From Fragilaria crotonensis (taxonomy: Eukaryota > Bacillariophyta > Fragilariophyceae > Fragilariales > Fragilariaceae): 43,464 nucleotides of DNA. The notes beneath the pieces were generated by a model that saw only the letters and a program-made list of their open reading frames with translations, was not told where the DNA came from and searched no databases. Position 1 is the stretch's first letter. Each line of letters begins with the position of its first letter. This document shows, piece by piece, positions 15,161 through 35,455 of this stretch. Both the position numbers and the translations under genes were made by a program. The stretch lies in contig JAKSYS010000532.1 in the NCBI GenBank assembly GCA_022925895.1, forward strand, positions 1-43,464, given 5' to 3'.

Positions 15161-15163
15161 AGA

Positions 15164-15194
15164 TCCGATTAGGTTTCACCAATTTGACGTCAGC
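15164..15194 (-). promoter_or_regulatory. 31 bp CRE-containing repeat, copy 1 (inverted)
   Basis: This repeat contains the palindrome TGACGTCA, the consensus CRE site of bZIP factors. It recurs at 17770-17800, 17831-17861 and 17958-17988 with at most one or two differences. Copies 1 and 4 share about ten further bases carrying a second TGACGT half site. Regulatory action is inferred from the motif only. Confidence 0.6.
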
Positions 15195-15473
15195 ACCCAC
15201 GTCACAGTAATAATCTAGAGTGAGACCTCCTGTAGAAGAATTTTGAAGACATCGGAAATTTGAATGGCTGACAAAACACGGAATCTTTGTTGTTGACTTC
15301 TATCGGTGCTTTTCCTAATGCGCATGCCAAGCCTTTGTCATGTCAGATAGATAACTGCTACTCTTCTCCTTCTATCAGTAATTCATGTGTTTCCCTTTTG
15401 AATCTTCATGTGTTTCCCTTTTGAATCACTTTCAGTACTACACTGTACTGCAACAGTACTACCGTACTCAAAG
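15195..15473. other. Spacer between repeat families
   Basis: No gene is seen. The phrase CATGTGTTTCCCTTTTGAATC is present twice in tandem (about 15384-15426). Confidence 0.5.
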
Positions 15474-16590: not shown

Positions 16591-16699
16591 CCCATCCTAC
16601 TCATGATGTCGAACAAGAGCGAAAGTCTAAGTCAACATTGTTATTAATTCTAAATGTACTACTTTTAAAAACTCCATGATGAGACATATGTTTGCACAC

Positions 16700-17340
16700 C
16701 TTGCCAACAGGACACCCGAAACTAGGGACCCTTTGGGTGGTGGTTTCTCAGAAGCCATGTTGGCTTTCTCGGTGAAGATAATCTTGTCAGTGCCTCCTCA
16801 ACAAGAAGACCTCTCTCGTGGGCTTTTGAGGCATCAACAAGACTAACTAGTTCCTTTGCTCTTGGCATAATGCTGTCATATGCATTGTAACGTTCCAATT
16901 CGGGTATGTCTTCATGGTGAAAACACGCGATCCAAAATCAATGCAGACAGTTTCTAAACTTGTAGATTCCATGAGGATGTTGTCATTGTCGTCATTATGG
17001 TATTCGTGTGCTGTACATCAACAAAATTATCAGAAACATCAGTTTCATGTCCAGAACAGAGGTCGTTGAGTGGTGCCTCAGGCAAGTGGATCTCTTGCAA
17101 CATTGATTAGCTAGGACCGAATAATGTGCTTGGAACCTTTGTACATAGAAGTAGTGTACTGAAAGAGGTCATACTTGGTTTCCAATGATGCATTGAAATC
17201 ATCGGTTGCATGACAAACATGACCTTTGAAGGCAAAGAAGCAGTCCATGACATAGCCTTGAGAGCAGATAGAGTCTGATCCACTGGATGTGGATCCTGCA
17301 TCAATGGTCCTTCTTGCTTGTTGTGGATGATCCTAAAGAG
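16700..17340 (-). pseudogene. Decayed unidentified protein-coding sequence
   Basis: On the minus strand, coding-like segments occur in several frames. One segment reads GSDSICSQGYVMDCFFAFKG and later SLETKYDLFQYTTSMYKG (about 17290-17110). A second, after a stop, reads IHLPEAPLNDLCSGHETDVSD (about 17095-17030). A third, about 65 codons long, contains MPRAKELVSLVDASKAHERG and ends LRNHHPKGP (about 16930-16725). Composition and length without stops suggest a real ancestral protein, broken by stops and frameshifts. I do not recognise the family. Its place beside a transposon cluster suggests a transposable element or host gene remnant. Confidence 0.4.
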
Positions 17341-17389
17341 AACAAAACAGGGGTTGGTTACAGAATAATCGGTAGGTGGGTGCTGTAGT

Positions 17390-17515
17390 AACGCAAAATG
17401 GCAACAGACAGAGAGCAAACAAGAGCAAAAACAGAACAACAGCAACAAGAGAAACAAAAGCAGCAAGGAGAGCAAGAACAACAAGAGAAACAAGAATGAC
17501 AGGGAGACAAAGTGC
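17390..17515 (+). repeat. Purine-rich CAA/GAA low-complexity tract
   Basis: A stretch of CAACAG, GAAACAAG and GAGCAAG words. On the plus strand it would encode Gln/Glu/Lys repeats; on the minus strand it makes a false Leu/Phe/Cys-rich 'membrane' frame (17107-17523), which I reject as a gene. Confidence 0.75.
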
Positions 17516-17769
17516 CGTACCATCGTGGTTGTGAAAATATCAAAATTATGAGTTTTGTGTGAGTAAACTTGAATCCACTACTGGTACCCTGTTATATACA
17601 CATCTAGACACGATCATTTTTATTTCTATTCAAACAAATGTGGCGCTGATTTATGTTCCTTATCTAGAACGTAGTTTTGCACAAGAGGTGGTTTGAAAAG
17701 TGGGCGCTGAGAAAATCAAAGATAAAGATTCCGTACAAGTTAAATTCCGCAACAAAAGTGCTGAAAAGT

Positions 17770-17861
17770 GCTGACGTCAAATTGGTGAAACCTAATCGGA
17801 CCCATATGCAAATATATATATCAAATGAGATCCGCTTAGGTTTCACCAATTTGACGTCAGC
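17770..17861. promoter_or_regulatory. CRE-containing repeats 2 and 3 as a head-to-head inverted pair
   Basis: 17770-17800 (plus) and 17831-17861 (minus) are the same 31 bp sequence in opposite directions with one mismatch, separated by 30 bp of A/T-rich DNA containing (AT)n. Each arm carries TGACGTCA. As single-stranded DNA or RNA this would fold into a stem of about 31 bp. It could be a pair of bZIP sites, a small foldback element, or both. Confidence 0.65.
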
Positions 17862-17957
17862 GTGTACCAATCAGGATGCTCTCAGTATGTTACTGTCTTA
17901 CTGTAGTACTGTAAGTCAGTACGTTGAACGTGAAGACATCAGTACTGTGACGTGGGC

Positions 17958-17988
17958 GCTGACGTCAAATTGGTGAAACCTAATCGGA
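17958..17988 (+). promoter_or_regulatory. 31 bp CRE-containing repeat, copy 4
   Basis: Same core as the other three copies, with TGACGTCA at 17960-17967. Upstream, 17947-17957 adds GTGACGTGGGC, which also precedes copy 1 when that is read on its own strand. The core is flanked by GTGGG and CCCAC, which can pair. Confidence 0.6.
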
Positions 17989-18133
17989 CCCACTTACTAC
18001 CACTAGTACTGGTACCGCTGAACACTCAGTATTGGTAGTGCGTGTAGTGTGTAGTGTGTATTTTGTTTGTATGTCATACAGTACATATATGTTCGGCGTG
18101 TGTAAAGTTGGTACTAGTAACTAGTACCAGTAC

Positions 18134-18214
18134 GTTGTTTAGCACACTATTTGTCGAACAAAGCTACGGTAGATTAGGAGTACCAGTACCCTGGTACTGA
18201 AGTAGGCGAACTAA
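18134..18214 (-). repeat. Copia-B left LTR, distal fragment
   Basis: It aligns with 34967-35060 (GTTGTTTAGCACASTATTT, GCTAYGGTAGAT, AAGTAGRC). The left limit is uncertain, because similarity to 34924-34966 is weak. The fragment ends in TAA (18212-18214), the left copy of the Harbinger target duplication. Confidence 0.65.
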
Positions 18215-18235
18215 GAGCATCCTCACTGCTTGAGC
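18215..18235 (+). repeat. Harbinger left terminal inverted repeat
   Basis: Begins GAGCATCCTCAC directly after TAA and pairs with 29480-29503. The first 12 bases match exactly, then a 3-base gap, then GCTTGAGC against GCTGGAGC. Confidence 0.85.
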
Positions 18236-18594
18236 GAAATCTGAGAAATGACCCAAGTAGGACCATTTGTGCCGAAAATTTTGTCCAAAATGCATGGCAC
18301 CACTTGTACCTCATATCATACCTCATACTACCTCATACTTGTACCTCAGATTTTGCGCCCAAGGGCCTCAAAATCTGAACTGGTTGGGCTCGAGAATTCA
18401 GCAAAATCAATGTATTCTCGAGCCGGCTCGAGATTCTCGCGCCCCTCGTTTTGTCCTATTGGACCCATTCGAATAACAAATTAGCCAATAGAATGTTATC
18501 ACGGATGCTGTTGGAATAGACCGTGACTGATGTCATTTTCTCGTGATCAGAATGTTCTCGAGTATCGTGATCATAGAATTTTGATTTCGAAAAA

Positions 18595-20003
18595 TGAACA
18601 TCTGTGACAACAACGACGACATCATGGAGTTCCTCATGCATGATGAGGACAATGATTTCACCGACACTCTTGTACTTATCGCCGAGAATCTCGCGAAGGA
18701 AGATGCAGATGATGGTGATGACACTCTTCTTGTTCCCCCATTTGTTTGGGGAAGTGCTTCTTGAGTTGGGAAAGCTCCAAACATTGAACGTCGTCGTGTT
18801 TTTTTTACTCGCATCTACTTTTCCATGATTTTTGGGCCCTTCTCCGATTTACAATGCAATGTATTTCAAGAAGTTCTTCAAGATACCAATTGGATTGTTC
18901 GATGATATTGTGGCAAAGGTGATAGCAAACAACAACTACTTCAGCCAGAAGACAGACGCGGTAGGTAAGATGGGATTGTCATCGGTTCAGAAGATCTGCT
19001 CAGCTGTCCGTCAGCTCACGTCTTGTGTCAGTTCGGCGGAACACGATGACAAGTTTCTTATGGGAGCCTCCACTGGCCTCCTGGAAGCCATGATGAAACG
19101 CTTTTGCCATTCGGTTATTGAAGTTTATGGAGATGAAGCACTCCTCCGTCACCCACATGCTGTTGACATCGGACAACTTCTGGACAAGGGGTGTGCCGCT
19201 GGCTTTCCCAGTTGCATAGGTTCAATTGACTGTATGCATTGGGAGTGGAAGAACTGTCCCTCCAGTTGGAAAGGGATGTTTCAAGGAAAGTCGGGTGTCC
19301 TGACAGTTGTTTTGGAGGCAATTGCGGAAAATAGTGTCGCATTTGGCATTTCAACTTTGGTTCTCCAGGGGCACCATTGAATGATCTCAGCATCTTGGAC
19401 CGCGCTCCCTTATTCAACAATGTTGTTTGTGGTGAATCTCCTTCTGTCAATTTTGTTGTCAAGAACGGGAATGCATATCAGTATGCGTATTGGCTTGGTG
19501 ACGTAATCTGTCCTCGCTATGCTTGTTTTGTGAAAACATTCTTCGCGAAACCCCAGACTCGGATGCAAAAAAATGTTTGCATCGGCACAGGAGGCAAAGA
19601 GGAAGGACATTGAGCAATCATTCGGAATGCTCCAAGCAAGATTCCATATCCTGACCTCCTGACCTCCGCTTGTCGTCTTTGGGAACGTCATGCAATGAAG
19701 ACAGTCATCAAGACGTGTGTGATTCTTCACAATCTTGTGATTGACTTCGAACGCCAGAATGGAGTTGATACTGACTACATTAATGATGAAATGTACATCC
19801 CGCAGCATCCGTTTGTTGTTATTCCTAGACCGGAAGGACAAACATTTGATACAAGATCCCAAATGATCTCGGCAATGCAGAACTAAGAACTTCACACTCG
19901 ACTTCAGCACGATTTGATGATCGACAGGTGGGAGAAATGGTATGCCAACAGCAATGATGACGACGACGAAGAACAACAACAAGAAGCTCAAGACGATAAC
20001 TAG
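18595..20003 (+). pseudogene. PIF/Harbinger transposase (DDE_Tnp_4 type), broken
   Basis: The transposase cuts and rejoins element ends. The frame starts at the ATG at 18595 (MNICDNNDDIMEF). It shifts near 18765, then runs 18832-19340 with YFKKFFKIPIGLFDDIV and GFPSCIGSIDCMHWEWKNC (first catalytic Asp). A shift near 19337 leads to FGSPGAPLNDLSILDRAPLF (second Asp). A shift in a run of seven A (19566-19572) leads to EAKRKDIEQSFGMLQARF (catalytic Glu). A frame change after a duplicated CCTGACCT (about 19655) gives HAMKTVIKTCVILHNLVIDF. An in-frame TAA at 19884 interrupts the tail, which then runs 39 codons to TAG at 20001-20003. Two of the shifts would be undone by one base in a homopolymer; the nonsense codon would not. 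Confidence 0.9.
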
Positions 20004-20365
20004 TAATCAATAATGCTGTGGCTGGGTGATATTCACGCACCACTGATTAAGGCGAGCCTTCAACGAGCAAGGGGGGCAGCCATCACGGGAATGAGGTCCA
20101 TACGTCAGTATCTTGGCGAACAGTAAAACCACAGCTGCTCCTATAAAAATAATAAAAATAAAATAAAAAGAGCGTGAGTGCGATCTTACTTGGACAAGGT
20201 AAGTTTTCACCGTATGAGTCGAATGCCTCTGGTATGGGCATTGCGGCAGTACGTAAAATAGAGTTCCGGTTTTTTTAGCATAGAAGAGCAGTTTGATAAT
20301 GATGACAACAAAACATTGACGAAGTAGTACTGGAGTAACAAGTAGTAACTATCTAGAAACTAGAA
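20004..20365. other. Harbinger spacer between transposase and copia-A insertion
   Basis: Non-coding; includes an A/T run with AATAAAAATAAAATAAA near 20148-20168. It ends ACTAGAA next to the copia-A LTR; the last four bases AGAA recur directly after the right LTR (27849-27852), a candidate target duplication. Confidence 0.5.
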
Positions 20366-20621
20366 TGAATGAATTCTGCCATGAGTGCGGGATATTCGGA
20401 CACCGGGACAGACCGAAGTATATTGGGCTGACGCGAGACGCGTGCCACGTACGCATGCGCGGATGGGACACTTCATCCGGGGCATGAGGGAACAAGTCTA
20501 GATTAAGCTCACTCTTTTTGTAAATAGTCAAGTTGCATGCTGCTACTAGTTGATTACTACATGTCTTAGAGTCGTCCCTGGCAATGGCGGATGCGCCGCT
20601 CTTGCGAGGGGAATCAACTGA
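20366..20621 (+). repeat. Copia-A 5' LTR
   Basis: 256 bp starting TGAATGAATTC and ending GAATCAACTGA; identical to the 3' LTR but for one extra G at the GAGGGGAATC run near 20611. The exact 3' end may instead be ...GAATCA (20616) if the TG...CA rule holds. Confidence 0.93.
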
Positions 20622-21751
20622 GTTTATCAGACCCAACAGGCATGTAGCTATGTTGTAGACATTAAATGCTTTTGTCAATGGTTGATGAGGAGGCCTGATC
20701 AGCCTCAACAGCAGAAGGAGCGCGGATTCTGCGATAATAGTCCTGTGGTCGTGGTGGTCGAAGATCCAGGCCTGCAGCCGTGGCTCGAAGACGGTAACGC
20801 TACCGTCGGCGTGTCGGTGAACGTCTCCCGAACGCAAAGACCTAACTCCGATGGGGGTTCAATGTGAAGCGCCATTTGGCGCCATCATAAGAGAGGGAAA
20901 GACCGACCATAAGAGGCGTTGTTTCGCTTTCGCCGTAAAGGTGGTGTAGCGCACGTCATGATACTAGTATAGTGGTGTTTATGTGAACACGACACTATTT
21001 GGTACCAATCCATGCCAGGATTGGATCTTGGTTGTCTGTCTAGTACAATTTCTACGAGATTGACTTATACTGGACATTTTCCGAACAGAGTTTGTTGTTT
21101 ACATAACTTGGTAACGAATGGATGCCATAAGTATCCTTCAACCGAGAATTTTGATCGGAATGAGTCACGATTGACATACGCGTAATGCTCACGCGTATGA
21201 ACGTGAAAACCATATGGAAGCGTACGACGTACGTGTGATGGCCACGCATATGAACACGAGAACCGCACGAGCACGACAATGACTGTTGTGAGTACTCGTT
21301 CGGGTTGGTTACCTATTGTTATGGGGTCATAGATGTCCGAGACATGACTGTTACTTCAAGTTGGGCACGCATGCCTCCACAGACACGACTGTTACTTCAA
21401 GTTGGGCACGCATGCCTTCACAGACACGACTGTTTTTGCGTATGCGCGTGGCCGTTTGTGCGTTTGGTCTGCGAGATTCCTAAGTACTCTCATCCGTGTG
21501 ACCAATGCGTGACGCGTATGTCAGCCATTTGTCACGAATGCGTCATCCGCGGCAACGGAGTACTGGGAGTTCTTGTGAATCTACCCGTGTGACTCACAGC
21601 AAACAGGATTGGACGTGTACGTGCAAAGTATTCCTACGTAGGGAACGTACCAGGAACACGTACATGCACCAGGGCCTGGGGCTCACAATTTTGCCAAATT
21701 TGCAAACCACGCGGTTAACCCGGTAACTACCCTCCTGTCTCACTTGTCACC
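20622..21751 (+). other. Copia-A 5' leader
   Basis: 1.1 kb between LTR and gag without a convincing gene. It contains a 41 bp tandem repeat (21341-21381, 21382-21422, partial 21423-21434) carrying ACTGTTACTTCAAGTTGGGC. It also has many ACGCGTATG/CATATG palindromic words (21170-21270). Such a leader would hold packaging or promoter signals. Confidence 0.6.
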
Positions 21752-23179
21752 ATGGCTGATGCCAGATCCTTCACTGCTTGCCTTACCCGCTTGGGTTTTG
21801 ATGTACCTACGCGGGAATTGATTGCAAACCAAGGTATTCGTACCATCAATGATCTAACTGCCTTACCTTTTCCAGAGATTGACACTATGATTCAGCACCT
21901 CTCCAGGTGGAAGCCAAAGGCGGCTGATGTCGATGACGACGATGATCCTGTCGCGTCCCCAACGTTCCCTTACCTTGCGGTTAGGAAGTTTAAGGCCCTA
22001 CGCTCGTGGGCAGATTACTCCCTTCTTCGCGGCGATGCTCCAAACCCCGCTCTTTTCGATGAACGCACCTCGTCGCGCTTTCTCAATCGATTGACTGAGT
22101 TGGAGGAGATTGCTCGAGCAAAGAAGGATGGGGACGATGCAAAGGAACCGCCAAAGTTAATGTTAATGACTGCATGGCCTACTTGGATTGAACTGTTTAT
22201 GACTTACCTTGCTCAGCAGAGGAGTGTCGTGGCGGGGACCCGCTTGTTTATGTCATCCGGGACAATGATGAGGCGGCGCCAGATGATCTTGCGCGCAATA
22301 ATTGGGATTCAGTCGATGATGACTTGATCGCCACTTCCGTCCTCGAGGGTGAAACCTTTTCTCGTGACAACAAGCGTGTGTTTGACATCCTTAAGCCCTT
22401 TGTGATGGAGGGACAGGGATGGCCATTCCTTCAGACATTTAACAAGAAGCGCGATGGTCGTGCAGCTTTCAAGGCTTTGAAGTCGCAGGCAGAGGGCAAG
22501 TCTGCTATTGCCACTAGGAAAGCTAAGGCATATAACATGCTCGCAACAGCTACCTACACTGGCAAGGGCAAGTTCTCATTTGATCAGTATGTTGCACGTC
22601 TTCAACAGGCTCACAATGAATTGTTGTTTTTGAAGAGCCAGTTGCTGAAACCAAGAAGGTTACAGATTTTCTGGCTGGGATCGTGACCCAAAGTTGGAGA
22701 CCGCCATTCAAGGTTGCATGGGCGATGAACTAAAGTTGACCAACTTTGAAGTGTGCCAGCAGTATTTCAAGACGATAGTGGAAAATACCAAGACCAGGAC
22801 CAAGTCACCTTCTGATGTTCGTGAGATCTCTAAGGTTGGAGTCGAAAAGGACAAGAAGAAGGCTAAGCACAAGAAAGACAAGTCGAAGTCCAATGATGAT
22901 GACAAGACACCAAGTGGCATTGCAATTCATTCTGGCCAATACTCGGCCAAAGACTACAACAAATTGAAGCCTTTTGAGAAGGCGAAAGTCAAGCAGCTCC
23001 GTGAGGAAGCAAAGAAGAAGGAGAAGAAGGACAAGTCTGACGCTCGCAGCGTTGCCGTTGTCGCGACTCAGGAGGAGGCACCCCCTGATGACAATGAAGG
23101 CACCAAGACACCTGTGGTTTCCAATGCTGGAAAACAGTTTGGTCGTGCTGCTCATGGTGAGCAGCAGAAGCAGGCTTGA
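21752..23179 (+). pseudogene. Copia-A Gag, three frames
   Basis: Gag forms the particle that packages element RNA. The start MADARSFTACLTRLGFDVPT is the first ATG of the long frame. Frames run 21752 to about 22235, about 22235 to 22640, a short middle piece to 22682, then 22694-23179. Segments such as FDILKPFVMEGQGWPFLQTF and TAIQGCMGDELKL read as one protein across the joins. The C-terminal part is very Lys-rich (KDKKKAKHKKDKSKS), consistent with nucleic-acid binding; no CCHC zinc knuckle is visible. Each frame change corresponds to a missing base in a short G or T run. Confidence 0.85.
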
Positions 23180-26100
23180 TGCCTCGCGCCGGCTCGTTAA
23201 GACAGACGACCTAATGTTAGTCTCCACTTATGTTCGAGAGGCCGGGCCCCTTCTAATCTTTGCTCTCGGTTTGTGAAACATGTCTTTCGCGTATCCGCAT
23301 CGACACCCTCCGGGGACGATGAAGATACACGCACCGAACTCGATTCTCATGCGGATACTTGTGTCGCAGGTCGCAACACTCTGCTTGTCTCTGACGAAGG
23401 TCGTCAGGTCACCGTTCATCCTTACAGCGGTGAATATAAGCCCATACCGGATGTCTCCATCGCCACTGTTGCGACTTTGTGGATTCACCCTACTGACGGG
23501 CAACCATACATCCTCATTATCAACGAGGCTCTGTATTTCGGGGACCGAGTGGATGTCACTCTGCTCAACCCCAACCAACTACGTGCGAATGGAGTCACGG
23601 TTGAGGATGTACCCCGCCAGTTTGATTCCAAGTCTTCGCATTCAATTTATCACCCAACCGCAAAGTTGCGAATTCCTTTATCCCTTGACGGCATCTCTTC
23701 CGGTTTCGTGAGTCGTAAACCCACTTGGGAAGAATACGAACAATACCCCACGTTGAATTGACATCCCCGATGCGCTGGGATCCCTCTTCTGACCAGTTTG
23801 CCAAAAAGGAGGAGACATATGTTTCCAGCGTGAGTGTTGCCGAAACGTTATTGGCAACTGATCATGTGAGGAATGCTTCGAGGTTGGTTTCGGCGGTGAA
23901 ATCTTTAAGCTCGATGAACGCTCCCATCGGTCTGGAGGATGACTCTCTTGGGAACCGGTTGGTGGCTGCAATCAACGTCGCAGTAGATGACATTGTCGGT
24001 GACGGCTTATCCGGGAGAACGGACAATGATGTCTACCCAATGGATGGAGAAAGCCGGAAATTGTTTTCCCTTTCAACTAGTGAGAAACGATCTGCCTTAA
24101 CACCTGAGATTCTTTCCAGAAGATGGGAGTTGGCCTTGACACTGCCAAGAGAACATTGCAAGTGACAACACAATCTGGGATAAGAAATGTCTTGGCACCG
24201 GGTGAAAGGAAGGTACGTCAGAAGCTTGATCATCTCGCTTTCCCAAACCTAAGCGGGCGCTGGTACTCGGATACGATGTTTTCGAAGACACAATCAGTCA
24301 GGGGACACTTGGCTGCACAGGTGTTCACCAATGGTCGTGGGAGTGACCACTTCTACCCCATGAAAAGCAAAGGCTTGGCTGGTCAAAATGCTTTGATGCC
24401 ATTCATTCAAGAGGTTGGGATACCCCAGACTATTGTGACAGACAATGCACCTGAAGAGGTCCACGGTGAGTTTGGAAAGATTTGTAGACGGTTCCGCGTC
24501 AAGCAAGAACAAACTGTCCCATACAGTCCGTGGTCCAACCTGGCTGAGTCAACGATTCGAGAATTGAAGGTCGGGATCCGGAGGACCTTGCGGCGCTCCA
24601 AGGCACCGAAGCGACTTTGGTGTTACTGTGGAAAGTGGGTGGCAGCGATAAGAAGACTGACGGCCCTTGATATACCCCAACTCCAAGGAAGGGTACCAGA
24701 TGAAGACGTGCTGGGATGTACACCCGACATTTCCCAGTATGCCCAGTTTGATTGGTATGAGCCGGTCATGTACTGGGACCCGGTTGGCAGCTTCCCGTTT
24801 GAGCAGAAGTTGTTTGGTCGATGGATTGGTGTTGCCGAGGTTTCAACCGACCTTATGGCGTTTTATATCCTGACCAGATCTGGGAAGGTGATTGTGCGGA
24901 AATCTGTTTGGGGATTGAGTGAGGATGATCTTGCCAACCCAGATATAAAGCTCCGACTATCTGAATTGGATGAAGGTATCCAGTCTAAGATTGGGGATGG
25001 ACTCAAGACAGAGGACATCGACCCAGACCTAATGGACTCCATGCCGGAGGTTCCTGATGATGTCTTCGAAGATGACGAGGACGACGTTCAGTCAGGGACA
25101 GGGGACCTTGATGGCACCGCCAAAGATGTCGAAGACCATACCCCTGAGTCCTATGATGAATACTTAACTGCCCAGGTGCTACTTCCCCAAGGTGGAGAAG
25201 CTAAGAGCAACTGTGATTGGGAGGAAGCGCGACCATGATGGTCGTCCGATTGGGCAGCGCCATGCAAATCCGTTACTGGATTCACGTCTCTATGAGGTGG
25301 AGTTTCCAGACGGATCAACGGAAGCGATTACTGCAAACCTCATTGCCGAAAACATGTTATCCCAGGTCGATGACGAGGGACGAAGTTATGCAGTGATGAG
25401 TGAAATTGTCGATCACCGAACGAACGGACATGCCTTGTCAAAGGATGACGGGTTTGTTGAAGACAAACGGGGACGGAGACATCCACGAATCACTACGCGG
25501 GGATGGGAGTTGCAAGTCGAATGGCGGGATGGCTCAACGACCTGGGTACCATTGTCAGAATTGAAAGAGTCAAATCCGATTCAAGTTGCGGAGTACGCTG
25601 TCGCCAACAAGATCGCTGAAGAACCTGCGTTCGCTTGGTGGGTGCGCAACGTCTTGCGTAAAAGGGATCGGATAATCAAGAAAGTCAAGGCCAGATACTG
25701 GGCGAAGACGCATAAGTTTGGCATTGAGCTCCCAAAGACTGTGGCAGAGGCCCTTAAGATCGATGAGCGAACAGGGACTGATTTTTGGAGGAAGGCAATC
25801 GAATTGGAGATGAAGAACGTCATGCCAGCATTCGAGTTCATTGATGATGATGCAGTGCCAAAATTCTACAAGAAAATTGATTGTCACATGATCTTTGATG
25901 TCAAGATGGACTTGACTAGAAAGGCGCGGTTGGTGGCCGGTGGGCACCAAACGGATCCGCCGAAAGAGTCTACGTACTCGAGTGTGGTGTCACGTGACAG
26001 TATACGAATTGCTTTCACGCTGGCGGCACTGAATGACTTGGATGTCCTTTCTGCCGATGTGCAGGGGCATACCTTAATGCTCCAACGAAGGAGAAGGTTT

Positions 26101-27406
26101 ACGACCGCTGGGTTGGAGTTTGGTGCAGACAAAGTTGGTCGACCGGTCCTAATTGTTCGAGCTCTCTATGGGTTGAAGTCAAGTGGTGCTCGATGGCGAG
26201 ACCACATGGCGGCCACGTTACGGGAAGGAGGCTTTGTAAGTTGCAGAGGTGATCCTGACGTATGGATGCGGCCCAAGGTGAAGACGAATGGGGACAAATA
26301 CTGGGAGTATGTTCTTTGCTATGTGGATGATATTTTGTGCGTGTCGCACGAACCGCAAGTGGTCATGGACTACCTCGCCTCCAAGTATACCTAAAGAAAG
26401 GAAGTGTGAAGGAACCTGACTCATATTTAGGTGCCGAAGTCAAGAAGTGGACAATCGACGGTGCAGACAACCCAAGCAAGGTAAGATGGGCAATGTCTTC
26501 TGACCTTTATGTAAAGCGTGCTGTAACCGAGGTTGAACGTGAACTTGATGAGATTGGTGAACGGCTAAGCACAAAGGTGTCGACGCCTATGAGTCAGGGT
26601 TACCGACCTGAAATTGATACGACCCCGGAACTGGACGCAAAGCGTGCGAACTATTTTCAGGGATTGATCGGGTGCTGCGCTGGATCTGTGAACTTGGGCG
26701 CGTTGATATCCTCGTTGACGTTGCAATGTTGTCGCGTTTTCTTGCTGCACCAAGAAGGGCATCTCGACCAAGCTTTCCACATCTTCGCGTACTTGAAACG
26801 ATACAATCCGGTCAAGCATGGTATTCGATGACACGGAGCCAGTGTTTGATGAGAGTCGCTTTCAGAAGTGTGATTGGACTGAATACTACCCGGGCGCGTG
26901 CGAGTAGAGCCGCCAGGTGCACCCGAATTACAGGGGCAATCGGTATCGATGAGTTGTTTTGTTGATGCGGACCATGCTGGTTGTCGTGTCACACGGCGCT
27001 CTCATACTGGAGTTTTGATTTTTATTAATCGAGCACCTATCCTTTGGTATTCGAAACGGCAAAATACTGTCGAAGCATCGACCTTTGGATCTGAGTTCAT
27101 TGCTGCAAAGGTTGCAGTGGAGATGATTGAAGGACTGCGTTACAAGCTGCGGATGATGGGTGTCAAGTGGATGGGCCAACAAACGTATTTTGTGATAATG
27201 AATCCGTCGTCAAGAATTCGACGAAGCCTGAGTCAACTCTGAAGAAGAAACACAATGCGATTGCTTACCACCGAGTGCGCGAAGCGCAAGCGGCAGGTAT
27301 TGTGCGGATCGCTAAGGAGGACGGAGAAACCAACTTGGCGGATGTCCTAACCAAGTGTCTTCCGGGGCCACGGCTAAGAGAGTTGTGCTCGCGTATACTT
27401 TGGTGA
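23180..27406 (+). pseudogene. Copia-A Pol: protease, integrase, reverse transcriptase, RNase H; several frameshifts
   Basis: Gag and protease are in the same frame, separated by TGA (23177) and TAA (about 23201). Protease has ELDSHADTCVAG (about 23336-23371; DSHAD in place of DSGA). Integrase (24123-25238) shows WYSDTMFS, IVTDNAPEE and LAESTIRELK, the D, D and E positions; the zinc-binding HHCC part is not recognisable. Reverse transcriptase (25192-26394) has KARLVAGG, ALYGLKSSGARW and the active site CYVDDILCVSH (near 26318-26350). RNase H has VDADHAGCRVTRRSHTG (about 26960-27010), STFGSEF and ADVLTKCLPGPRL. Frame changes are near 23745, 24125, 25200, 26065/26100, 26388, 26672, 26815, 26905 and 27165; most equal one base gained or lost in a homopolymer. 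All catalytic motifs themselves are intact. Confidence 0.9.
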
Positions 27407-27581
27407 CTGGTCCAAAAAGGACGCGGTTACGAGTGGAGTACATAATGATTATGGAACCACTAACCCCCAAAACGGATGGGTGGACGTACACGTGATGACA
27501 CGTGGAACCACCACGAACTAGCCGAAGTCGGCCGGCCACTGCATTGACGAATTCGGTCGAACTAGTCGTCTCTGACGGTTA

Positions 27582-27593
27582 GCTCGAGGGGAC
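27582..27593 (+). promoter_or_regulatory. Copia-A polypurine tract
   Basis: GCTCGAGGGGAC directly before the 3' LTR; its GAGGGGA core is the expected primer site for plus-strand DNA synthesis. Assigned by position. Confidence 0.6.
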
Positions 27594-27848
27594 TGAATGA
27601 ATTCTGCCATGAGTGCGGGATATTCGGACACCGGGACAGACCGAAGTATATTGGGCTGACGCGAGACGCGTGCCACGTACGCATGCGCGGATGGGACACT
27701 TCATCCGGGGCATGAGGGAACAAGTCTAGATTAAGCTCACTCTTTTTGTAAATAGTCAAGTTGCATGCTGCTACTAGTTGATTACTACATGTCTTAGAGT
27801 CGTCCCTGGCAATGGCGGATGCGCCGCTCTTGCGAGGGAATCAACTGA
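27594..27848 (+). repeat. Copia-A 3' LTR
   Basis: 255 bp, the same as the 5' LTR except for one fewer G near its end. It is followed by AGAAGATAAC, back in Harbinger sequence. Confidence 0.93.
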
Positions 27849-27864
27849 AGAAGATAACTAACAA

Positions 27865-29218
27865 CTAGGCGTCGAGTGTAGTCCATTGCATTTCCTCCTC
27901 CTCAATTGGCTCAACCTCAACTTTAACCGTCATTGAAATCGAAGCATTGTTTTCCTTTTCGTCGTCAGAAAAATCAGATCTACGGATCATTGTTAAATCA
28001 ATAATTGGAGGCGCATTCAAGTAGCAGGTTTTGTCATACTCCTTTACCCAACAAGCTTCTGCGTGTCTGGTAGAAGTCCAAAATCTGGCTCATCTTCGAG
28101 AACGTTGTCGACAGGGCTGACAGGAATGCTGGTTGTCGTCACGACAACAGGACGTAACGCCAAGTCAGAATACTCTCTAGACTTTGCTTTCGGCAAGGAA
28201 AGCAATCAAGCAAGCAACGGATTGTGGGTTTGCCAACAAGAAGACTTGCATCATCAACTACCCTTTTAGCAATTCCAGCTTGCATCATCAATTGCTCCTT
28301 GGCAATTCCGTTTTCGGTTTCGACGGCCAAAGCCATCCGTTTACCAACTAAGTTCTTGACTTCCGCAGCTGATGCCAAACGCTAAAGAGAAACATTGTTA
28401 GCTATGGTGTTGATGCAAGGGGATGGCAACTGTACCTTCATTTTTTTTCAGCAGCTTTCTGCTGTGCAATGGCTTTTGCTTTCTTCTTCCCAATGGAAGG
28501 GCGTGGTGTCATGGCAAGGTCACAAAAGTACAGCACGATCATGCACACCACTTGCACCAGTGTCGGCAGTCACAAGAACAATAGGTTCCGCCTCTGCTTC
28601 AACGTTGTCAAGGACATTCGAATTGCTGTCTTTATCCACAGAATTCAACAAAGCGGTGATGTTAGCAACAGGGAACATTGCAGCAACACGAATTGCATCA
28701 CGTTCCAGAGCACGTTTGTTGTCGTTGTCAAGGAGGGCCAATGCCCGACCCACTTTTGGATGATGGTGTCAAGCGAAATTTTGTACTTTACCAAAGGACC
28801 TCCTGAGTATGTGTCTCGTATACGATGTTGTGTTTGAAGAACTTGCCATCCTTGGTCTGGAATTCGGATGTTGCCTTCGTGGTGTCGCTGTTCATAGACC
28901 AACCACTATGATATTTACGAAGAGCGGCGTGAAGGTAGCCGACGTACTTGTTGACTTCTGCCTGCAATACTTTGTTGAAACGATTCTTCAATGAGAGAAG
29001 AGTGCGAGTTGCCAAGCCTCCACGCTGCATAAAATTGTCACGAATCTTCTTCCAATATGTTTCGCCATCTTGATCAGTACCGACCGCTGCATTTGTTGTC
29101 ACAAAAACATGCGCAGAAGCCAGCTTCATGTCTTCGTCGATCTTGAAGTACGACTAACTGTGGCGCAGACAATGATGCGATGTGCATCCTGGTGGTTCAG
29201 CACGTCGGCATCTTCCAT
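27865..29218 (-). pseudogene. Harbinger Myb/SANT-like accessory protein, broken
   Basis: In PIF/Harbinger elements this second protein binds DNA and helps the transposase reach the nucleus and the element ends. On the minus strand an ATG at 29218 (MEDADVLNHQ) is followed, after a frame change, by YFKIDEDMKLASAHVFVTTN and DGETYWKKIRDNFM...SLKNRFNKVLQ. This is the trihelix/Myb-like pattern, with spaced aromatic and basic residues (about 29150-28890). A later part has TPRPSIGKKKAKAIAQQKA (about 28513-28450), the typical Arg-Pro...Gly-Lys-Lys-Ala-Lys patch of these proteins. A 54 bp intron (28382-28435; GTACAG donor, CTCTTTAG acceptor) leads to RLASAAEVKNLVGKRM. The C-terminus ends EEEMQWTTLDA at TAG 27865-27867. 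Several frame changes and a stop near 28520 break it. Confidence 0.78.
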
Positions 29219-29479
29219 GGCCTTGAAATCAGCAATCTGCTGAAGAAAGTATAAAGAAGTGACAGAGCTGTAAGCATCAATCAACAACAAACACTCGTTG
29301 ACACCAAACGACGATACTCGAAACGTTATTGAAATTCAAATCTGAGTCTAATTTACGGTATGCCAGTATTTCTAGCCGGAGAAATTGAAAAGGCTCTCAA
29401 CGCAGTGCAAAAAGATACCACCAATATGTCCAAAATAGGTTTCTAAAGGTGCCAGACCAATATGTCCGATTCAGATGTT

Positions 29480-29503
29480 GCTCCAGCGGGTGTGAGGATG
29501 CTC
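29480..29503 (-). repeat. Harbinger right terminal inverted repeat
   Basis: Ends GTGAGGATGCTC, the exact complement of the first 12 bases of the left end, and is followed by TAA (29504-29506), the right target duplication. Confidence 0.85.
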
Positions 29504-29713
29504 TAAAGTTGCTCAAACTTTGCTTCGAATTTAGGATTGTTGCGATTGCGTTGTTCTTCTCCGTACCCGGTGTACGTTTTACCATATCTGCCCAAGATAC
29601 GGTTGCAGTCGAATCAACGTTCTTTACTTCTGCATCAGCACCCTCCTTTGTACTGATTAGGCAGTGAGTTACTAGCACTGTCTGCACTCTGTTTGCCAGG
29701 ACGGATTCCAACA
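29504..29713 (-). repeat. Copia-B left LTR, proximal fragment (3' LTR of the element)
   Basis: Aligns with 35060-35318 in the same orientation. It lacks about 35 bp present in the other copy (35100-35140) and differs at many sites. The end GGATTCCAACA, read on minus, is the TGTTGGAATCC start of a copia LTR. Both copies contain a minus-strand coding-like segment (KNVDSTATVSW) whose meaning is unclear; it may be coincidental or a captured gag/pol end. Confidence 0.75.
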
Positions 29714-32700
29714 CGCTCCTCGGGATGGCTGCAAGGTGGGGCAAACAGTGTGTCGATGTGGTGTGCTCCTATAACAAATTCCCTGAACTTCTGGAAGAGA
29801 TTCCCCTGGAGCGGCTTGGTCAAGAAATCTGCAAGCATCTGGAGGGTTGGACAGTGGCGGACCGAAATGTTGCCAGATGTTGTACGGTCCCAAACCCAGA
29901 AGAAACGGATGTCAATGTGACGAAACTTCGGCCCTGATGATGCACGTCTGTTCTTCTCGAGTCTGATGGCACTTTCGTTGTCCTACTCTAGCCATGTCTC
30001 CATCATTTTGTCTCCCTGTCCTTTGAGGGACATCTTAGCCCAGATTGCATTGGAGAGGTAGTTGCTCACCCCAACCAGTTCCGCCTCTGTGGAGCTCCTT
30101 GTGTTGAGTTTTTGTTTCGTTGACTTACACATGATGCCACCTGTTCTCAATGACATGACACCACCCGTGTGGCTTCGCATGTCGTGATTAACTGCATAGG
30201 ACGCATCGACCCAATAGCCTACCTTCCCGAGATTTTCGGCACCCACTGTGTATTCGAGGTCCAGAGTACTTTTGGCGTACTCGAGAACGCGCTTAAACTT
30301 CGATAGGTCCTGTGTTGTGGCCCTGGATACTTCTCTGGTGCACAGGAAACGGCCAGCAGGAGGTCCATACGTGCCCGGATCGACACGAACAGGAGCCTGG
30401 CAACAATGCTATGGAATTGTATGATTGCTGAAGGGTTAACCCTTAGGCAGACCTGTTGATGTCAAAGAGGGTTCGCATCGCACGTATTGAGTAGTCAAGT
30501 CCCGATTTGTCAATGGCCTCCTTTAGGTAGTCCTTCATCGTTATTGTTGCTGTACGGTCGTCATTCTATTGCACCTTCATCCCAAGGAAGTTGTGCTCCT
30601 GCCCTCTGGTTATACAGACATCTTGCCAAACTTCTCCTCAAGCTTATCAATCATTGTGGTAATCACCCTTGCATCACGGTGGGATAAATTCAGATAGAGT
30701 AAGTACCAAGCAATACTGCACGTCAATCCATCAATGGTGCAGTTTGCAATGCACTGGTTGTATGGGTTCAGTTTAAAACCCAAACCTTTGATGGTGCCTG
30801 TCAGCAGATTGTAACAAAACAATGCCAATTTGACGCTATCATAGAGGGCCTTCTTGTCCAGGACCTCGTATAGATTTTCTGTGGTCACATATTCCCTGTG
30901 AGCGGGGTTCATCTTGCATTAGCTATATTGTGACTGCCTCGCCCGTGATCTTCATGACCACAAAATCGTCCATGTCTGCCTTTATACGCCCTCCTGCAAT
31001 GTCGCCGACCTCTACGTCGGGTCCTCGTATGCGTCCTCTCTCGATGATGGAGATGACGAGGGCATGATTCGAAACCGTTGGCGACGTGGTCTGAGCCATT
31101 TCGTAAAACCTGCGTTGTGGTCTCCCGTCGGCGCAGGTGCGGCCCCTCAGATTGCCGTCTTGCTTTTCCTTGATCAGGAGGTTCACGGCACGCAGGGCCG
31201 TCTTGCGTTGCAAGGGTGTCATGCTCGATGCTTTGACCGAGTGGTAGACATTCAAGACTTCCATCTGGACGAACTCCTTTGTCATGGCGTTCTCCACCCT
31301 CCTTCTGTGCTTCTTGATTCCCGCTATGGTGGTCATTTGTGTCTAGACCAAACCAACCGCAGAATGGAGGGACTCAGGGGTGATCGCAAGTTGCGTCGTC
31401 TGAGTAGGTGGGCAGTACAACTTGCTGCTGTGGGGACTGTCTGCCAATTGCACGCTTGAAAGTGCTCGTGTTCCGCAGGTTGTAGTACGGTCATTGGGTC
31501 TCAGAAGCGCTGTGTTGGTCTCTTCAACAAGCTCAACTCATGCGTGTGTTTCCTTAGTCGGTTCAACCCGGTCATCTGGTTGGATGTCGGTGGCATCATT
31601 GTCAGTATGGCCCTCGGCGTCTTCAGGGTTGCCATGTCCATCGTATGCATCCTGGTATGCGTTGCTTGTCCTCTTGATGGCTCCAATATCGTCGCGGGGG
31701 TTATTTGCGGTCCCGTCGGCGTCGTCGGCATAGGTCTTATCAAGATCATTGTCGTCGTCGCTGACAAGGGGTTCGTGGTACCCATGCTTGTCATTTTCGT
31801 GGTCGTTCTCGTGGGTATGCGCTCCTTGGTTCAGGGGGTAGGGATCGGCTGCTGGGGCAATATCGGGAACGGCGAGGCCGGCGAGTCCATCGGGATCGAT
31901 GGGATCGAAGTCGAGGAGGGGTTCGTCGTAGTCACCGTCGTATTCCGAGTCATCAATCGGATGATCGGGGTGTCACTCGACAACGAGGAGACCTCGGTCC
32001 TGAACGAGAGATTGGCCATCGTGGAGGGCAAGCGCTTCAACGCAAGCGATGGCGGTGTCAGTGAGAGGAAGAAGGGGCCAATTGTCGCGGGAATTGCGAG
32101 CGCCGGTGGTCAGGGAGAGGAAATTGTACGCTCCTTGAGCGTTTTCGATCGGCATCAGGGCAATGGCGCCAAGGGTACAGGCACGGGGCGTGTTAGTCGG
32201 TTAAGTATCCTCAAACACTTGGACATACGAACCGAACTAGAGGCACAAGGTGTTGTTGTCGGGCAGCGCCGCTCCAGTCACGATGGCAGCGGGGCTCAGC
32301 GCGTCAGAGGTGCCGCGGTGGCTGGGAAACATACTACTGAGGCAGCGAACGACGACGTCGACCATGTGACGTATCACCAATTTTGGCACACGTTCTTTGA
32401 AAACGAGGCCATGAACCGTGGAACAGAGGCGCTCCTTGGTCGTACGGATGGACTGCTCGACCTCGCCGACATGGCAGTCAGTGGACATGATTTTCATCAC
32501 CATGGGGAGGATGTCGGTGCGGACATACTCAAATTCGGGGTCGGCGTGGACATCGCAAACGGTGAAACCACAGTGTGGTTCAAAGCAACTGCTGTGGTAA
32601 GCTCGCGGAGGATGGTTTTGTGGGTGCGGTTGGGGGCATACTGCACAGTACGAAAGCCAATGTTGCGGGAAATTGTGTGCAGGAAACAAATGCCTTGGAC

Positions 32701-33400
32701 AAAGAAGAAGTCGGCGCACAGGGTCACGTTTTGATGGTGCGCGAGCACGGGAGGAGGGATGGCAACAGCCTTGAAAGTAGGAGCGCGGCCCGGGGAGGAG
32801 CGAGTCATCTTACCTTTAAGGACCGCTATGTCAGGACCATAGATGAGGAGTGCTTCGTAAGCGTTGTCTTGGGTGACCAGGCAGTTCCTGACGAGCTTAT
32901 TTCGGAGAATGGACTGGAACTCCGTCACTGGGGCGTCCTAATTTGTTCCGATAGATCTCACGCGCTGCGTCGTCGGCTTCCACCTGCCGGTTTGTGAACA
33001 GTTTCTTCTGTCCGGCTACTGTGGACACCATAGTGTACGCGGTGACAGTGGAACGGTGGCGTTGCTATTGTTAGATATTTGAAAGCATAAAGCCCTGAAG
33101 GCTGCTCCACAAATTCCATGATGGAGCCATCCAAATGATGAACGAACATTGAGGATTGTAACTCTGCAGACCTTGCAGACGGCCGCGAGTGATAAGATGC
33201 TGGCAATCGAATCGCGGTTGTACCCAACCTCGCCCAGGTTTGGAAAATCGCCGACCGTCGTTGAATCCTGAAAAACACCGTTGATGATTACGCGAAGAAC
33301 ATTCCGGCTTGGCCAGATGTTTATCAACATGGACAGATTCTTGATGACGGAGATGGTTGACTGTGAGTTGAGTAGGATCCACGATGGATCAATGCCATGA
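29638..33400 (-). pseudogene. Copia-B Pol remnants: protease, integrase, RT, RNase H
   Basis: Order on minus: protease WILLNSQSTISVIKN (about 33387-33343), where the catalytic Asp is Asn (33367-33369). Integrase has CADFFFVQGICFLHTI, CDVHADPEFEYVRTD and VGEVEQSIRTTKERL, supplying D, D and E in shifted frames (32930-32400). A linker includes YNFLSLTTGARNSRDNW (near 32130). RT has CADGRPQRRFYEMAQ (about 31130), then AWYLLYLNLSH (about 30709-30677) in place of the AWYVDD active site, so the metal-binding aspartates are gone. RNase H has GYWVDASYAVNHDMRSHTGG and SSTEAELVGVSNYL (30230-30060). The end MLADFLTKPLQGNLF is at 29838. Many stops and shifts; the element is dead. Confidence 0.85.
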
Positions 33401-34797
33401 GATTGACTTGACTGCGCCATCATCAGACCATGCTGCAAGAGAATGACACCGCCGGCGGGAGTAGCGTTTGCTCCGGCTTTGCTTGTACAGTCTGTCGAAT
33501 AGTTGCCCATTAGGTTGCAGTTGAAACAGGTGATGCCGGGGTTCACAGCTCCGCTGCTGCCAGGCGTGGGTGGCGTGACGCCACATTGCGCAGCCAGAAG
33601 TGAGTGCACTTGACTCAGGGCTGGTGCTGGTGTTCAAGCAACTGCTGTGGAGCAACACTCGCATTCCTGGGGCAGGCATTCTCTGGGGTCTTAAAATTGA
33701 CCAGCATGCTACATGCTGCGGAAAGCACAGTCGGGTATTCGTCTTTACCCATCACTTAAGAATTGGCAAACTCGGTGATGAGTGTGCCGTATCTGTTTGG
33801 GTCTGGGCCCTTGATAAGTGCAATTGCCAAGGTAATGTCACTGGCAATAGTCTGTATTTCCTCATCTGTTTGCTGATGCCCTTGATCGTCGGAATGGGGA
33901 ACCAGCTTGTGGCTCATGGCAATGGTACCGCTGCGATACTCTATAGTGTCACCATCCCTTGAGTTCCTGTCCGAGTTGGGTGTTGTTGGCAGCCAGTTCA
34001 GAAAACCCTTGAGGGCATCCATTGCTGAGATAAAAGGGATTCCTCATCAAACAGCAGTGTGACAGCCTAAATCTGTTGGAGGAGCCATAAGCAGCCAGTC
34101 GTCAGTGTGAGCCTTTCCTTTGGATCCGGAGATGTACTTGATCTTGGACTTCATCGCCTCCTGCCCCCAGATGACGACATGCATCAGTGATGTGGGTGGC
34201 TGCAAGGATGCTTTGTAGAGTGTCGATTTGCTTGGAGTACGTCTTCACTTTTGCGGTCCAGAGGGCTTCTTGTGGTTTGGTTGCATTGTTGCCTGGGTTG
34301 TCGAGTGGGAGTTTTTGTGGCTCAATCATGGGATCGGCAAATAGGTCGGCAAGGTCCTCTGAGAACCTTAAGTTCTTCATGCAATATCCTTGTAATGCAT
34401 CCACTGGTGTCTTGGCAAACTGGTGTCCGTCCGAGTGCTCATCAAAGCACTCAGAGACGATCCCATTCATGGATTTGGTGGCCCCTTTGAAGCTGCTCGT
34501 CCGCGCAACCCGGCGTGCTTGTCTTCGTACACTGCCTGTTCTGTTTTGACTTGCAGGTCCACGACCTCGTCCGGCTCGTCCCGTCCTACAAACTGATGCC
34601 GATGTTTGCGCTCCGGTTGCTGCTTGGAGATCGCTCATGTTGTCCCGCTCTGCTTTCGTTGTCTGTCCAGTTGGTTGGAGCTGAAAGAGTTTTTCGAGGT
34701 TATTCGGTGCTCGCCACGTGTGGGTGCCGTTGTCAGTAATGAAATGGATTTGCGATGGCGTTCGTTCCTTGTTTGCTGAGCGCCTCTTGTTGGTCAC
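33401..34797 (-). pseudogene. Copia-B Gag remnant with damaged zinc knuckle
   Basis: The longest frame (34797-34102) contains FKGATKSMNGIVSECFDEHS and TPVDALQGYCMKNLRFSEDL, a Gag-like core. A second piece (34022-33756) continues with MDALKGFLNWLPT and EIQTIASDITLAIALIKG. The nucleocapsid knuckle CFNCNLMGNYSTDC (33528-33487) has the spacing Cys-X2-Cys-X4-His-X4-Cys, but the His is replaced by Asn. The N-terminal start is uncertain. Confidence 0.75.
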
Positions 34798-34923
34798 TGC
34801 TGGCTCACTCCGGCTTTGCGTTGCGGGCTGCTGAGTGGTGATAGCCTTGATCTGTTTGATTCATAGGTGGAGGTTTGTAGTTCCTGCGTGAGACTGCTGT
34901 CAATGTCGATTGGGTGGTTGTTC

Positions 34924-35318
34924 TGTTAAGAAAAACGTTCAGGAAAGTACTTTCTATTGCAAAAAGGTTGTTTAGCACAGTATTTACCGCAACACAGTAC
35001 TAGGGCTCTTACCCAATGCCCTCAACGCTATGGTAGATGATGAGTAGTCTAATAAAGTAGACAGTAAAGTTGTTCAAACTTTGCTTCAAATTTGGGATTG
35101 ATGTATACGTCGTTTACCTTTCCTGTCGCCTGAGCGACTGCGTAGTTCTTCTTCGCACCCGGTGTACGTTTTACCACATCTGCCGCCCAAGATACGGTTG
35201 CAGTCGAATCCACGTTCTTTAGTTCTGTGTCAGCAGTCAGCACCCTCCTTTGTTCTGATTAGTGAGTTACTAGCACTGTCTGCACCCCGTTTGCCAGGAG
35301 CCAGGACGGATTCCAACG
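34924..35318 (-). repeat. Copia-B right LTR (5' LTR of the element)
   Basis: About 395 bp. The left edge TGTTAAGAAA is the complement of an LTR ending ...AACA. The right edge GGATTCCAACG corresponds to the LTR start with one change. It matches the split copy at 18134-18214 plus 29504-29713. Limits are estimates. Confidence 0.65.
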
Positions 35319-35455
35319 CAGTATACATAGAAGATAGATCCCTTTAACTGGTGGCACTGTAAGAGCATGATCACTGATCACCCGTGGGGCTTTTTAGTTC
35401 GCACACACTGGTCAAGAGGTGGTGGTAGCATTGCAATGGCCACCTTGTGTCATAC
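35319..35455. other. Spacer between copia-B and the next tandem array
   Basis: Non-coding, no motif recognised. It may include the copia-B target duplication, which I could not define because the left boundary is unclear. Confidence 0.35.

What the first reader, a model, noticed from the sequence alone, without database searches (positions are those of the whole stretch)
18134..35318. Three-level nest: copia-A inside Harbinger inside the LTR of copia-B
The interrupted LTR of copia-B (18134-18214 plus 29504-29713) is restored by removing the Harbinger element, whose ends share GAGCATCCTCAC and a TAA duplication. The Harbinger element in turn is restored by removing copia-A. This gives a clear relative order: copia-B oldest, Harbinger next, copia-A last. 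Decay level agrees: copia-B has lost catalytic residues, Harbinger has a nonsense codon, and copia-A keeps all motifs and near-identical LTRs.
Basis: partly seen in the sequence, partly recalled or inferred. Interest (0 to 1): 0.8.

Follow-up and report, generated by a model that had tools for sequence, protein, structure and literature searches.

The report
Four jumping genes nested together
A stretch of what looks like algal DNA holds an old jumping gene that was hit by a second kind, which was itself hit by two more; this is a clear but ordinary genomic fossil record, and its smallest piece led to a folded RNA tag that one group of jumping genes may use to copy itself.

Summary
The nest is real. 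An old copia-type element (copia-B, 18133-35318, minus strand) has its 3' LTR split by a PIF/Harbinger element (18215-29503). That element is split by a young copia-type element (copia-A, 20366-27848). Each junction pair carries a target-site duplication: CAGTA (5 bp), TAA (3 bp), AGAA (4 bp). Uninterrupted relatives of the copia-B LTR and of the Harbinger occur elsewhere in the genome. The weak point, the left LTR piece, passes: 0 of 1000 shuffles and 0 of 619 window pieces score as well.

Corrections: the Harbinger also holds a fourth element, a 5'-truncated LINE tail (about 20013-20278). copia-A has LTRs without substitutions, but its frames are broken by small indels, some probably assembly errors. 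Nesting alone does not exclude that Harbinger plus copia-A moved as one unit.

Nested transposons of these classes are well known, so the finding itself is ordinary. The LINE tail belongs to a 3'-UTR RNA fold with strong covariation. It lies downstream of the reverse transcriptase in 6 of 8 LINE candidates picked by reverse transcriptase match, and on short elements flanked by target-site duplications. That side result is the most interesting part.

The parts
18128..18132 (.). copia-B target-site duplication, left copy (CAGTA)
   Evidence: identical to 35319-35323; edge placed with uninterrupted LTR relatives
18133..18214 (-). copia-B 3' LTR, outer piece, cut off by the Harbinger
   Evidence: aligns with right LTR and with L014-L016; 0 of 1000 shuffles and 0 of 619 window pieces reach the score
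18212..18214 (.). Harbinger target-site duplication, left copy (TAA)
18215..29503 (+). PIF/Harbinger element, interrupted by a LINE tail and by copia-A
   Evidence: imperfect inverted ends of about 26 bp shared with family members; relatives L001-L003 of about 3.7 kb
18579..19955 (+). broken Harbinger transposase gene (Plant_tran / DDE)
   Evidence: Pfam PF04827 on two fragments; tblastn with the L002 transposase shows nonsense codons and frame changes
20013..20278 (+). 5'-truncated LINE copy: last 36-37 codons of the ORF, then the structured 3' UTR; the 5' edge is approximate
   Evidence: not in L001-L003; C-terminal peptide match at 20019-20117; frame read; RNA model 114 bits
20171..20278 (+). 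LINE 3'-UTR structured RNA module ending in a T run
   Evidence: model R1 match (the window copy is one of the 11 sequences the model was built from); covariation
20362..20365 (.). copia-A target-site duplication, left copy (AGAA)
20366..20621 (+). copia-A 5' LTR
   Evidence: 0 substitutions against 27594-27848; edges from relatives
20622..27593 (+). copia-A internal region: integrase (24108-25238) before reverse transcriptase (25168-26394), frames broken by small indels
   Evidence: Pfam rve E 0.0035 (under cut-off) and RVT_2 7e-9; frames; comparison of 8 copies
27594..27848 (+). copia-A 3' LTR
27849..27852 (.). copia-A target-site duplication, right copy (AGAA)
28788..29153 (-). second Harbinger reading frame, possibly the Myb/SANT-like DNA-binding protein
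   Evidence: like the L002 frame 2883-3734 in sequence, place and strand; no Pfam match, so the name is inference
29504..29506 (.). Harbinger target-site duplication, right copy (TAA)
29507..29713 (-). copia-B 3' LTR, inner piece
29714..34965 (-). copia-B internal region, decayed; reverse transcriptase VDD motif lost, stop codons
   Evidence: tblastn with copia relative L090 against the window alone, E 1.8e-67 (reverse transcriptase) and 2.1e-41 (integrase)
34966..35318 (-). copia-B 5' LTR
35319..35323 (.). copia-B target-site duplication, right copy (CAGTA)

Best explanation
Successive, independent transposon insertions. copia-B entered by reverse transcription and integrase, duplicating CAGTA, and then decayed. 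A PIF/Harbinger element entered its 3' LTR at a TAA by cut-and-paste, duplicating TAA. A truncated LINE copy and later a young copia-A entered the Harbinger between its two genes; copia-A duplicated AGAA. Shown: the anatomy, the three duplications, uninterrupted relatives of the LTR and of the Harbinger, and the divergence ranking. Inferred: that each insertion happened at this locus and in this order, and that the LINE came before copia-A.
For: Target-site duplications at all three pairs of junctions. Family members follow the same rules. Of 15 Harbinger-family elements with both ends in hand, the window's included, 14 have matching 3-bp duplicates, 13 of them TAA or TTA and one TCA; L019 does not match (L001 counted after shifting its printed left edge by 7 bases by eye). 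Of 9 pairs of copia-A relatives' ends that were fetched, 7 could be read, and all 7 have 4-bp duplicates. Uninterrupted copia-B LTR relatives L014-L016 run through the Harbinger site. Harbinger relatives L001-L003 lack copia-A and the LINE tail. Divergence: copia-B LTR pair K2P 0.14, copia-A LTR pair 0 substitutions. Harbinger and copia-B genes are decayed.
Against: No allele or strain with an empty site was found; the right flank of copia-B has no full-length match elsewhere in the assembly. The Harbinger relatives are only about 75-82% identical and do not align clearly across the exact copia-A site. The terminal bases of the copia-B LTRs differ between the two copies, so the LTR edge, and with it CAGTA, rests on relatives. 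The contig may carry indel errors.
Confidence: 0.9

Rival explanations
1. Composite move: copia-A entered the Harbinger at another locus, and the 11.3-kb Harbinger with copia-A inside was later moved as one unit into the copia-B LTR by a transposase supplied from elsewhere.
For: Nesting and duplications would look the same. A family member on C429 has its two ends about 9.6 kb apart (not fetched), so long members exist, whether or not they moved as such.
Against: The Harbinger is diverged, with imperfect inverted ends and several lesions, whereas copia-A has no LTR substitution, so a move after copia-A entered would have to be very recent and by a degraded element.
Confidence: 0.07
2. Assembly artefact: the contig was joined wrongly at repeats, and the nest does not exist as one molecule.
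For: copia-A is a multi-copy family with near-identical copies, and the contig shows private small indels.
Against: A false join would not be expected to give matching target-site duplications at all three pairs of junctions, nor to restore an LTR that aligns with relatives through the site.
Confidence: 0.03
3. The left LTR piece (18133-18214) is unrelated GTAC-rich DNA, and copia-B is a truncated or one-LTR element.
For: A strict local alignment gave a score hardly above controls (36 against 32).
Against: Gap-tolerant alignment to four LTRs: 0 of 1000 shuffles and 0 of 619 window pieces as good for each; LTR edge and CAGTA duplication where relatives predict them.
Confidence: 0.01

Closest known systems
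Nested retrotransposons, as in maize intergenic DNA (recalled, no paper read)
   Same: Elements inserted into elements; LTR divergence and target-site duplications give the order.
   Different: Here the nest mixes LTR elements, a DNA transposon and a LINE tail in a small genome (62 Mb assembled).
Diatom Copia elements CoDi1-7; PtC25/PtC75 beside split CoDi5.3 in Phaeodactylum (PMC2806351; passages and section 18 read)
   Same: Ty1/copia-like elements; a case of a Copia element inserted into another with a target-site duplication; 3 of 26 families lack TG/CA ends.
   Different: That case was followed by recombination between chromosomes; here both parts of the host element lie around the insert. 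Membership of copia-A or copia-B in a CoDi group was not tested.
PIF/Harbinger DNA transposons with MITE derivatives (family traits recalled)
   Same: Plant_tran/DDE transposase, shared inverted ends, TAA/TTA duplications, copies of about 770-820 bp that share both ends.
   Different: The second (Myb/SANT-like) protein was not recognised by Pfam.
Stringent-type LINEs whose 3' tail stem-loop is bound by ORF2 protein (PMC4176376; abstract and outline read)
   Same: A folded RNA at the 3' end of a LINE; here short elements share only this tail.
   Different: The fold here has a variable first hairpin plus a closing helix over a second hairpin, and ends in a T run. Binding by the LINE protein is untested.

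Membership tests
PIF/Harbinger | 3-bp TWA target-site duplication | tested here: met
   TAA/TAA in the window; 14 of 15 family elements with both ends (window included) have matching 3-bp duplicates, 13 TWA and one TCA
PIF/Harbinger | terminal inverted repeats shared with family | tested here: met
   about 26 bp, imperfect in the window copy
PIF/Harbinger | DDE transposase of the Harbinger type | tested here: met
   PF04827 E 1.4e-19 and 3.8e-5 in window fragments; E 1.1e-79 in relative L002, plus DDE_Tnp_4 6e-11
PIF/Harbinger | second protein with Myb/SANT-like domain | tested here: inconclusive
   conserved convergent frame at 28788-29153, no Pfam match at E 0.1
Ty1/Copia (copia-A) | integrase before reverse transcriptase; RVT_2-type RT | tested here: met
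   rve (E 0.0035, under cut-off) at 24108-25238, then RVT_2 (7e-9, over cut-off) at 25168-26394
Ty1/Copia (copia-A) | LTR pair with a target-site duplication (5 bp usual, recalled) | tested here: met
   4 bp in the window and in all 7 of 9 fetched pairs that could be read: a departure in length
Ty1/Copia (copia-A) | TG...CA LTR ends | tested here: not met
   ends are TGAA...CTGA; 3 of 26 CoDi families also lack TG/CA (PMC2806351, section 18), so this does not exclude the superfamily
Ty1/Copia (copia-B) | copia-type integrase, RT and RNase H in order | tested here: met
   tblastn with copia relative L090 (RVT_2 2.3e-14): integrase upstream, RT/RNase H downstream on the minus strand; no direct Pfam match over cut-off
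Ty1/Copia (copia-B) | catalytic VDD-type motif of the RT | tested here: not met
   motif lost in the window copy; decayed element
LINE (fourth insert) | tail of a LINE ORF followed by 3' UTR, 5' truncation, target-site duplication | tested here: inconclusive
   ORF tail and 3' UTR found; no target-site duplication of 10 bp or more found for the window copy
Stringent-type LINE tail | conserved 3'-UTR RNA structure shared by LINE and short partner elements | tested here: met
   covariation; downstream of the RT in 6 of 8 candidates picked by RT match; on short elements with flanking duplications
Stringent-type LINE tail | tail bound by the LINE protein and needed for copying | not testable with these tools
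   needs binding and copying assays

The most novel reading that the evidence does not exclude
The smallest piece of the nest is the tail of a LINE group whose 3' UTR carries a conserved, covarying RNA fold that acts as the tag by which the LINE's reverse transcriptase picks its template. At least two kinds of short element in which no LINE protein tail was matched (about 215 bp and about 830-860 bp) have taken over this tag to be copied. This would be a stringent-type LINE/partner system in a diatom-like alga, with a tag fold that gave no Rfam match.
Probability: 0.55. Interest if true: 0.5.

Novelty: new member of a known kind. Interest (0 to 1): 0.32.

Why it matters
The nest gives a clean relative chronology of different transposon classes at one locus and defines ends and target-site rules of families in this genome: 4-bp duplications for copia-A, TAA/TTA for Harbinger and its short derivatives. 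The LINE tail found inside it points to a folded RNA tag shared by full and partner elements. This can be tested directly by structure probing and binding assays, and such a tag could be used to find transposon ends in related genomes.

Tried and rejected
Chance LTR match: rejected. Assembly chimera: unlikely because of the three duplications. Empty allele: none found. The left-flank search was swamped by a repeat with 39 other places among the 40 candidates scored (of 284). The right flank gave only partial matches: three of 68-70% identity over up to about 270 bases and one of 80% over about 50. The 250-bp insert was first taken for a possible solo LTR, then a Pol III small RNA or SINE. Rfam gave no match for 11 relatives (E up to 1) or for the window (gathering cut-offs); later loci were not put to Rfam. 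The peptide match and RVT_1-based sampling settled on a LINE tail.

Against the LINE-tail reading: RT-side frames of L088 gave no Pfam match at 0.1, and its 181-residue frame no Protein Data Bank sequence match at E 10. 2 of 8 RVT_1 candidates (L098, L099) have no such tail. RVT_1 scores of the two long LINE frames are under the curated cut-off (22.1 and 25.1 against 29.6). One measure of the covariation test, the number of further pair types, was reached by 27 of 500 shuffles in the first alignment and 5 of 500 in the second. In the flanking-repeat test, 14 of 25 loci count at 12 bp or more; L066 and L067 overlap in one tandem region and L074's repeat may be chance, so about 11 of 25 is safer; permuted control 4 of 600. 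An earlier version of that test with shifted windows as control was spoilt, because the shifted windows reached the repeats of longer elements. Short contigs tend to have more private indels, but not strictly. A Protein Data Bank search to name the host by the 251-aa frame at 7348-8103 found nothing.
Full report
What was checked. Of six frames outside the nest put to Pfam, four matched: an NDH2-type oxidoreductase, two parts of a chitin synthase and an exostosin domain. I infer a diatom or similar alga; this was not tested further.

Level 1, copia-B. The right LTR (34966-35318) and the two left pieces (18133-18214, 29507-29713) belong to one family with three uninterrupted relatives on C273 and C578. 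The relatives run through the Harbinger site and fix the LTR edges, which places a 5-bp duplication, CAGTA, on both sides of the element. The terminal bases themselves differ between the two LTRs. The outer left piece was the doubtful part. A strict local alignment barely beat controls (36 against 32, 297 controls). Gap-tolerant alignment beats 1000 of 1000 shuffles and 619 of 619 window pieces against each of four LTRs, two of them alike. The LTR pair differs at 35 of 274 aligned columns (K2P 0.14); the outer piece alone is more diverged (17 of 71) than the inner one (18 of 203). The coding region lies on the minus strand, matches a copia relative (RVT_2 2.3e-14) at E 1.8e-67 and 2.1e-41 in a search of the window alone, and has stop codons and no VDD motif.

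Level 2, Harbinger. 18215-29503 is bounded by TAA/TAA and by inverted ends shared with a family. Of 15 elements with both ends read, the window's included, 14 have matching 3-bp duplicates, 13 of them TAA or TTA and one TCA; L019 does not match, and L018 and L019 share a flank and may be one locus. L001's left edge was read by eye 7 bases to the left of the printed one. Three relatives of about 3.7 kb align over most of the length, in pieces of about 75-82% identity in the main, and copies of about 770-820 bp share both ends. The relative L002 has a 478-residue frame with Plant_tran at E 1.1e-79; the window copy has nonsense codons and frame changes.

Level 3a, copia-A. LTRs 20366-20621 and 27594-27848 have no substitution in 255 columns and one 1-base indel. 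Its family has LTR ends TGAA...CTGA and a 4-bp duplication, seen in all 7 of 9 fetched pairs whose ends could be read; the window has AGAA/AGAA. Eight copies differ pairwise by 0.33-1.12% in substitutions and by 11-38 indels, nearly all of 1-2 bases (28 pairs). The window copy has 12 private indels (11 deletions, 1 insertion) and 7 private substitutions, all 7 of C>T or G>A type. Its coding region is in about nine open pieces. So many small deletions in so young a copy suggest assembly error in part, so lesion counts in this contig are a weak clock; LTR substitutions are the better one.

Level 3b, a fourth element. 20013-20278 is not found in Harbinger relatives L001-L003 and has relatives elsewhere. 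The 5' part encodes the last 36-37 residues of a LINE ORF (frame; tblastn 60.6% identity over 33 residues, E 2.5e-8 in a small set of loci). The 3' part is a 108-base module ending in a T run.

The module. In 11 aligned copies, 16 of 28 pairs have changes on both sides and 0 of 500 shuffles reach this; slid structures give 2-7; the count of further pair types is less clear (27 of 500 shuffles reach it). In 35 copies, 21 of 28 pairs and 181 of 978 cells have changes on both sides, 0 of 500 shuffles for each (this alignment was fitted to the model, includes sequences it was built from, and leans towards it). A pattern of 21-22 places for the core finds 92 places in the genome, and its reversed control 0. 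From 111 RVT_1 matches I picked eight of the weaker group that begins near profile position 34 and fetched the DNA downstream. Six of the eight (L092-L097) carry the module, none of them among the 92 places. In five it begins 17-21 bases after the stop of a frame; in L096 the frame ends about 130 bases earlier. L098 and L099 have none. Two more loci, L091 and L100, were picked because an RVT_1 match lay 3-4 kb upstream of a core match. They carry the module 26 and 19 bases after frames of 1637 and 1234 residues (the second cut by the edge of the fetched piece), with RVT_1 at E 1.4e-4 and 1.6e-5, under the curated cut-off; L100 also has zf-RVT, under cut-off. In L100 the module after the frame is not the core match that led there, which lies further on. 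A control of 15 other transposon loci gave one hit, in L062. Of 24 loci cut (the first 24 of 92 listed) plus the window, 14 have an exact flanking repeat of 12 bp or more, against 4 of 600 permuted pairs; about 11 if tandem and doubtful cases are dropped; the window copy has none. Element lengths between the repeats cluster near 215 bp (L073, L078, L084) and 825-860 bp (L070, L071, L077, L079, L080), with others of 127, 983 and 1242 bp (L065, L072, L063). No LINE ORF tail was matched just upstream of the module in those eight (three query tails). In L070 and L071 another module lies a little upstream of the longer element; this was not followed. This is the pattern of a LINE tail shared with short partner elements. 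Rfam had no match for 11 relatives or for the window.

Order. Divergence and nesting agree on copia-B, then Harbinger, then copia-A. The LINE tail's place relative to copia-A is not fixed; its 79% identity to its nearest copy suggests that it is older.

Known or new. Nested transposons are familiar (recalled), and a Copia element inside another is described for a diatom (PMC2806351, passages and section 18 read). Another paper, of which I saw passages, reports most diatom CoDi insertions in a single haplotype (PMC8147415), so an empty allele here would be no surprise. Searches for diatom Copia, Harbinger/MITE, nested elements, SINE and non-LTR elements listed no paper whose title or abstract opening describes the LINE tail fold; a search without the diatom term for covarying LINE 3'-UTR structures listed none. 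Only open-licence full texts are held, and nearly all listed papers were not opened. Stem-loop recognition of LINE tails is known from zebrafish (PMC4176376, abstract and outline read).

Noticed in passing
window 20171-20278; loci L048-L058, L063-L086, L088, L090-L097, L100: Covarying RNA fold (three helices, T-run end) at the 3' end of a LINE group and of short partner elements; 92 core matches in the genome against 0 for the reversed pattern.
   Followed up: yes
window 40795-41054: A second, decayed LINE tail: C-terminal peptide match at 40795-40911 (E 0.004) and RNA-model match at 40952-41054 (28.3 bits, E 1.4e-4).
   Followed up: partly
window 15162-17804: A 2.64-kb element with about 35-bp inverted ends and an inner array of about 15 copies of a 72-bp repeat; its last 405 bases recur at 93-100% identity in at least 39 other places.
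   Followed up: partly
window 17828-18003: A short piece with the same inverted ends beside that element; part matches L062 at 97%.
   Followed up: no
loci L003 (258-1039), L004 to L008: Derivatives of about 770-820 bp of the Harbinger family that share both ends, with TAA or TTA duplications; MITE-like.
   Followed up: partly
copia-A copies L041-L047 and window: Many 1-2-base indels between near-identical copies, from about a fifth of the number of substitutions to more than that number in the two closest window pairs; the three shortest contigs have 8-12 private ones, the others 1-10: a possible sign of assembly errors.
   Followed up: partly
window 18180-18198: GTACCAGTACCCTGGTACT, with an 8-bp inverted repeat, sits in the left copia-B LTR and is missing from the right LTR and relatives; the only match in the window.
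   Followed up: no
C295:165094-165127 (L008) and C429:12665-12698: Harbinger-type elements begin 12 bases after a LINE-tail core at two places, possibly one duplicated locus. The C429 element has its ends about 9.6 kb apart and may hold an insert of its own.
   Followed up: no
C142:47241-69476: copia-A type LTRs in the order plus, minus, minus, plus (47241, 48347, 55584, 69220): perhaps one copia-A inside another.
   Followed up: no
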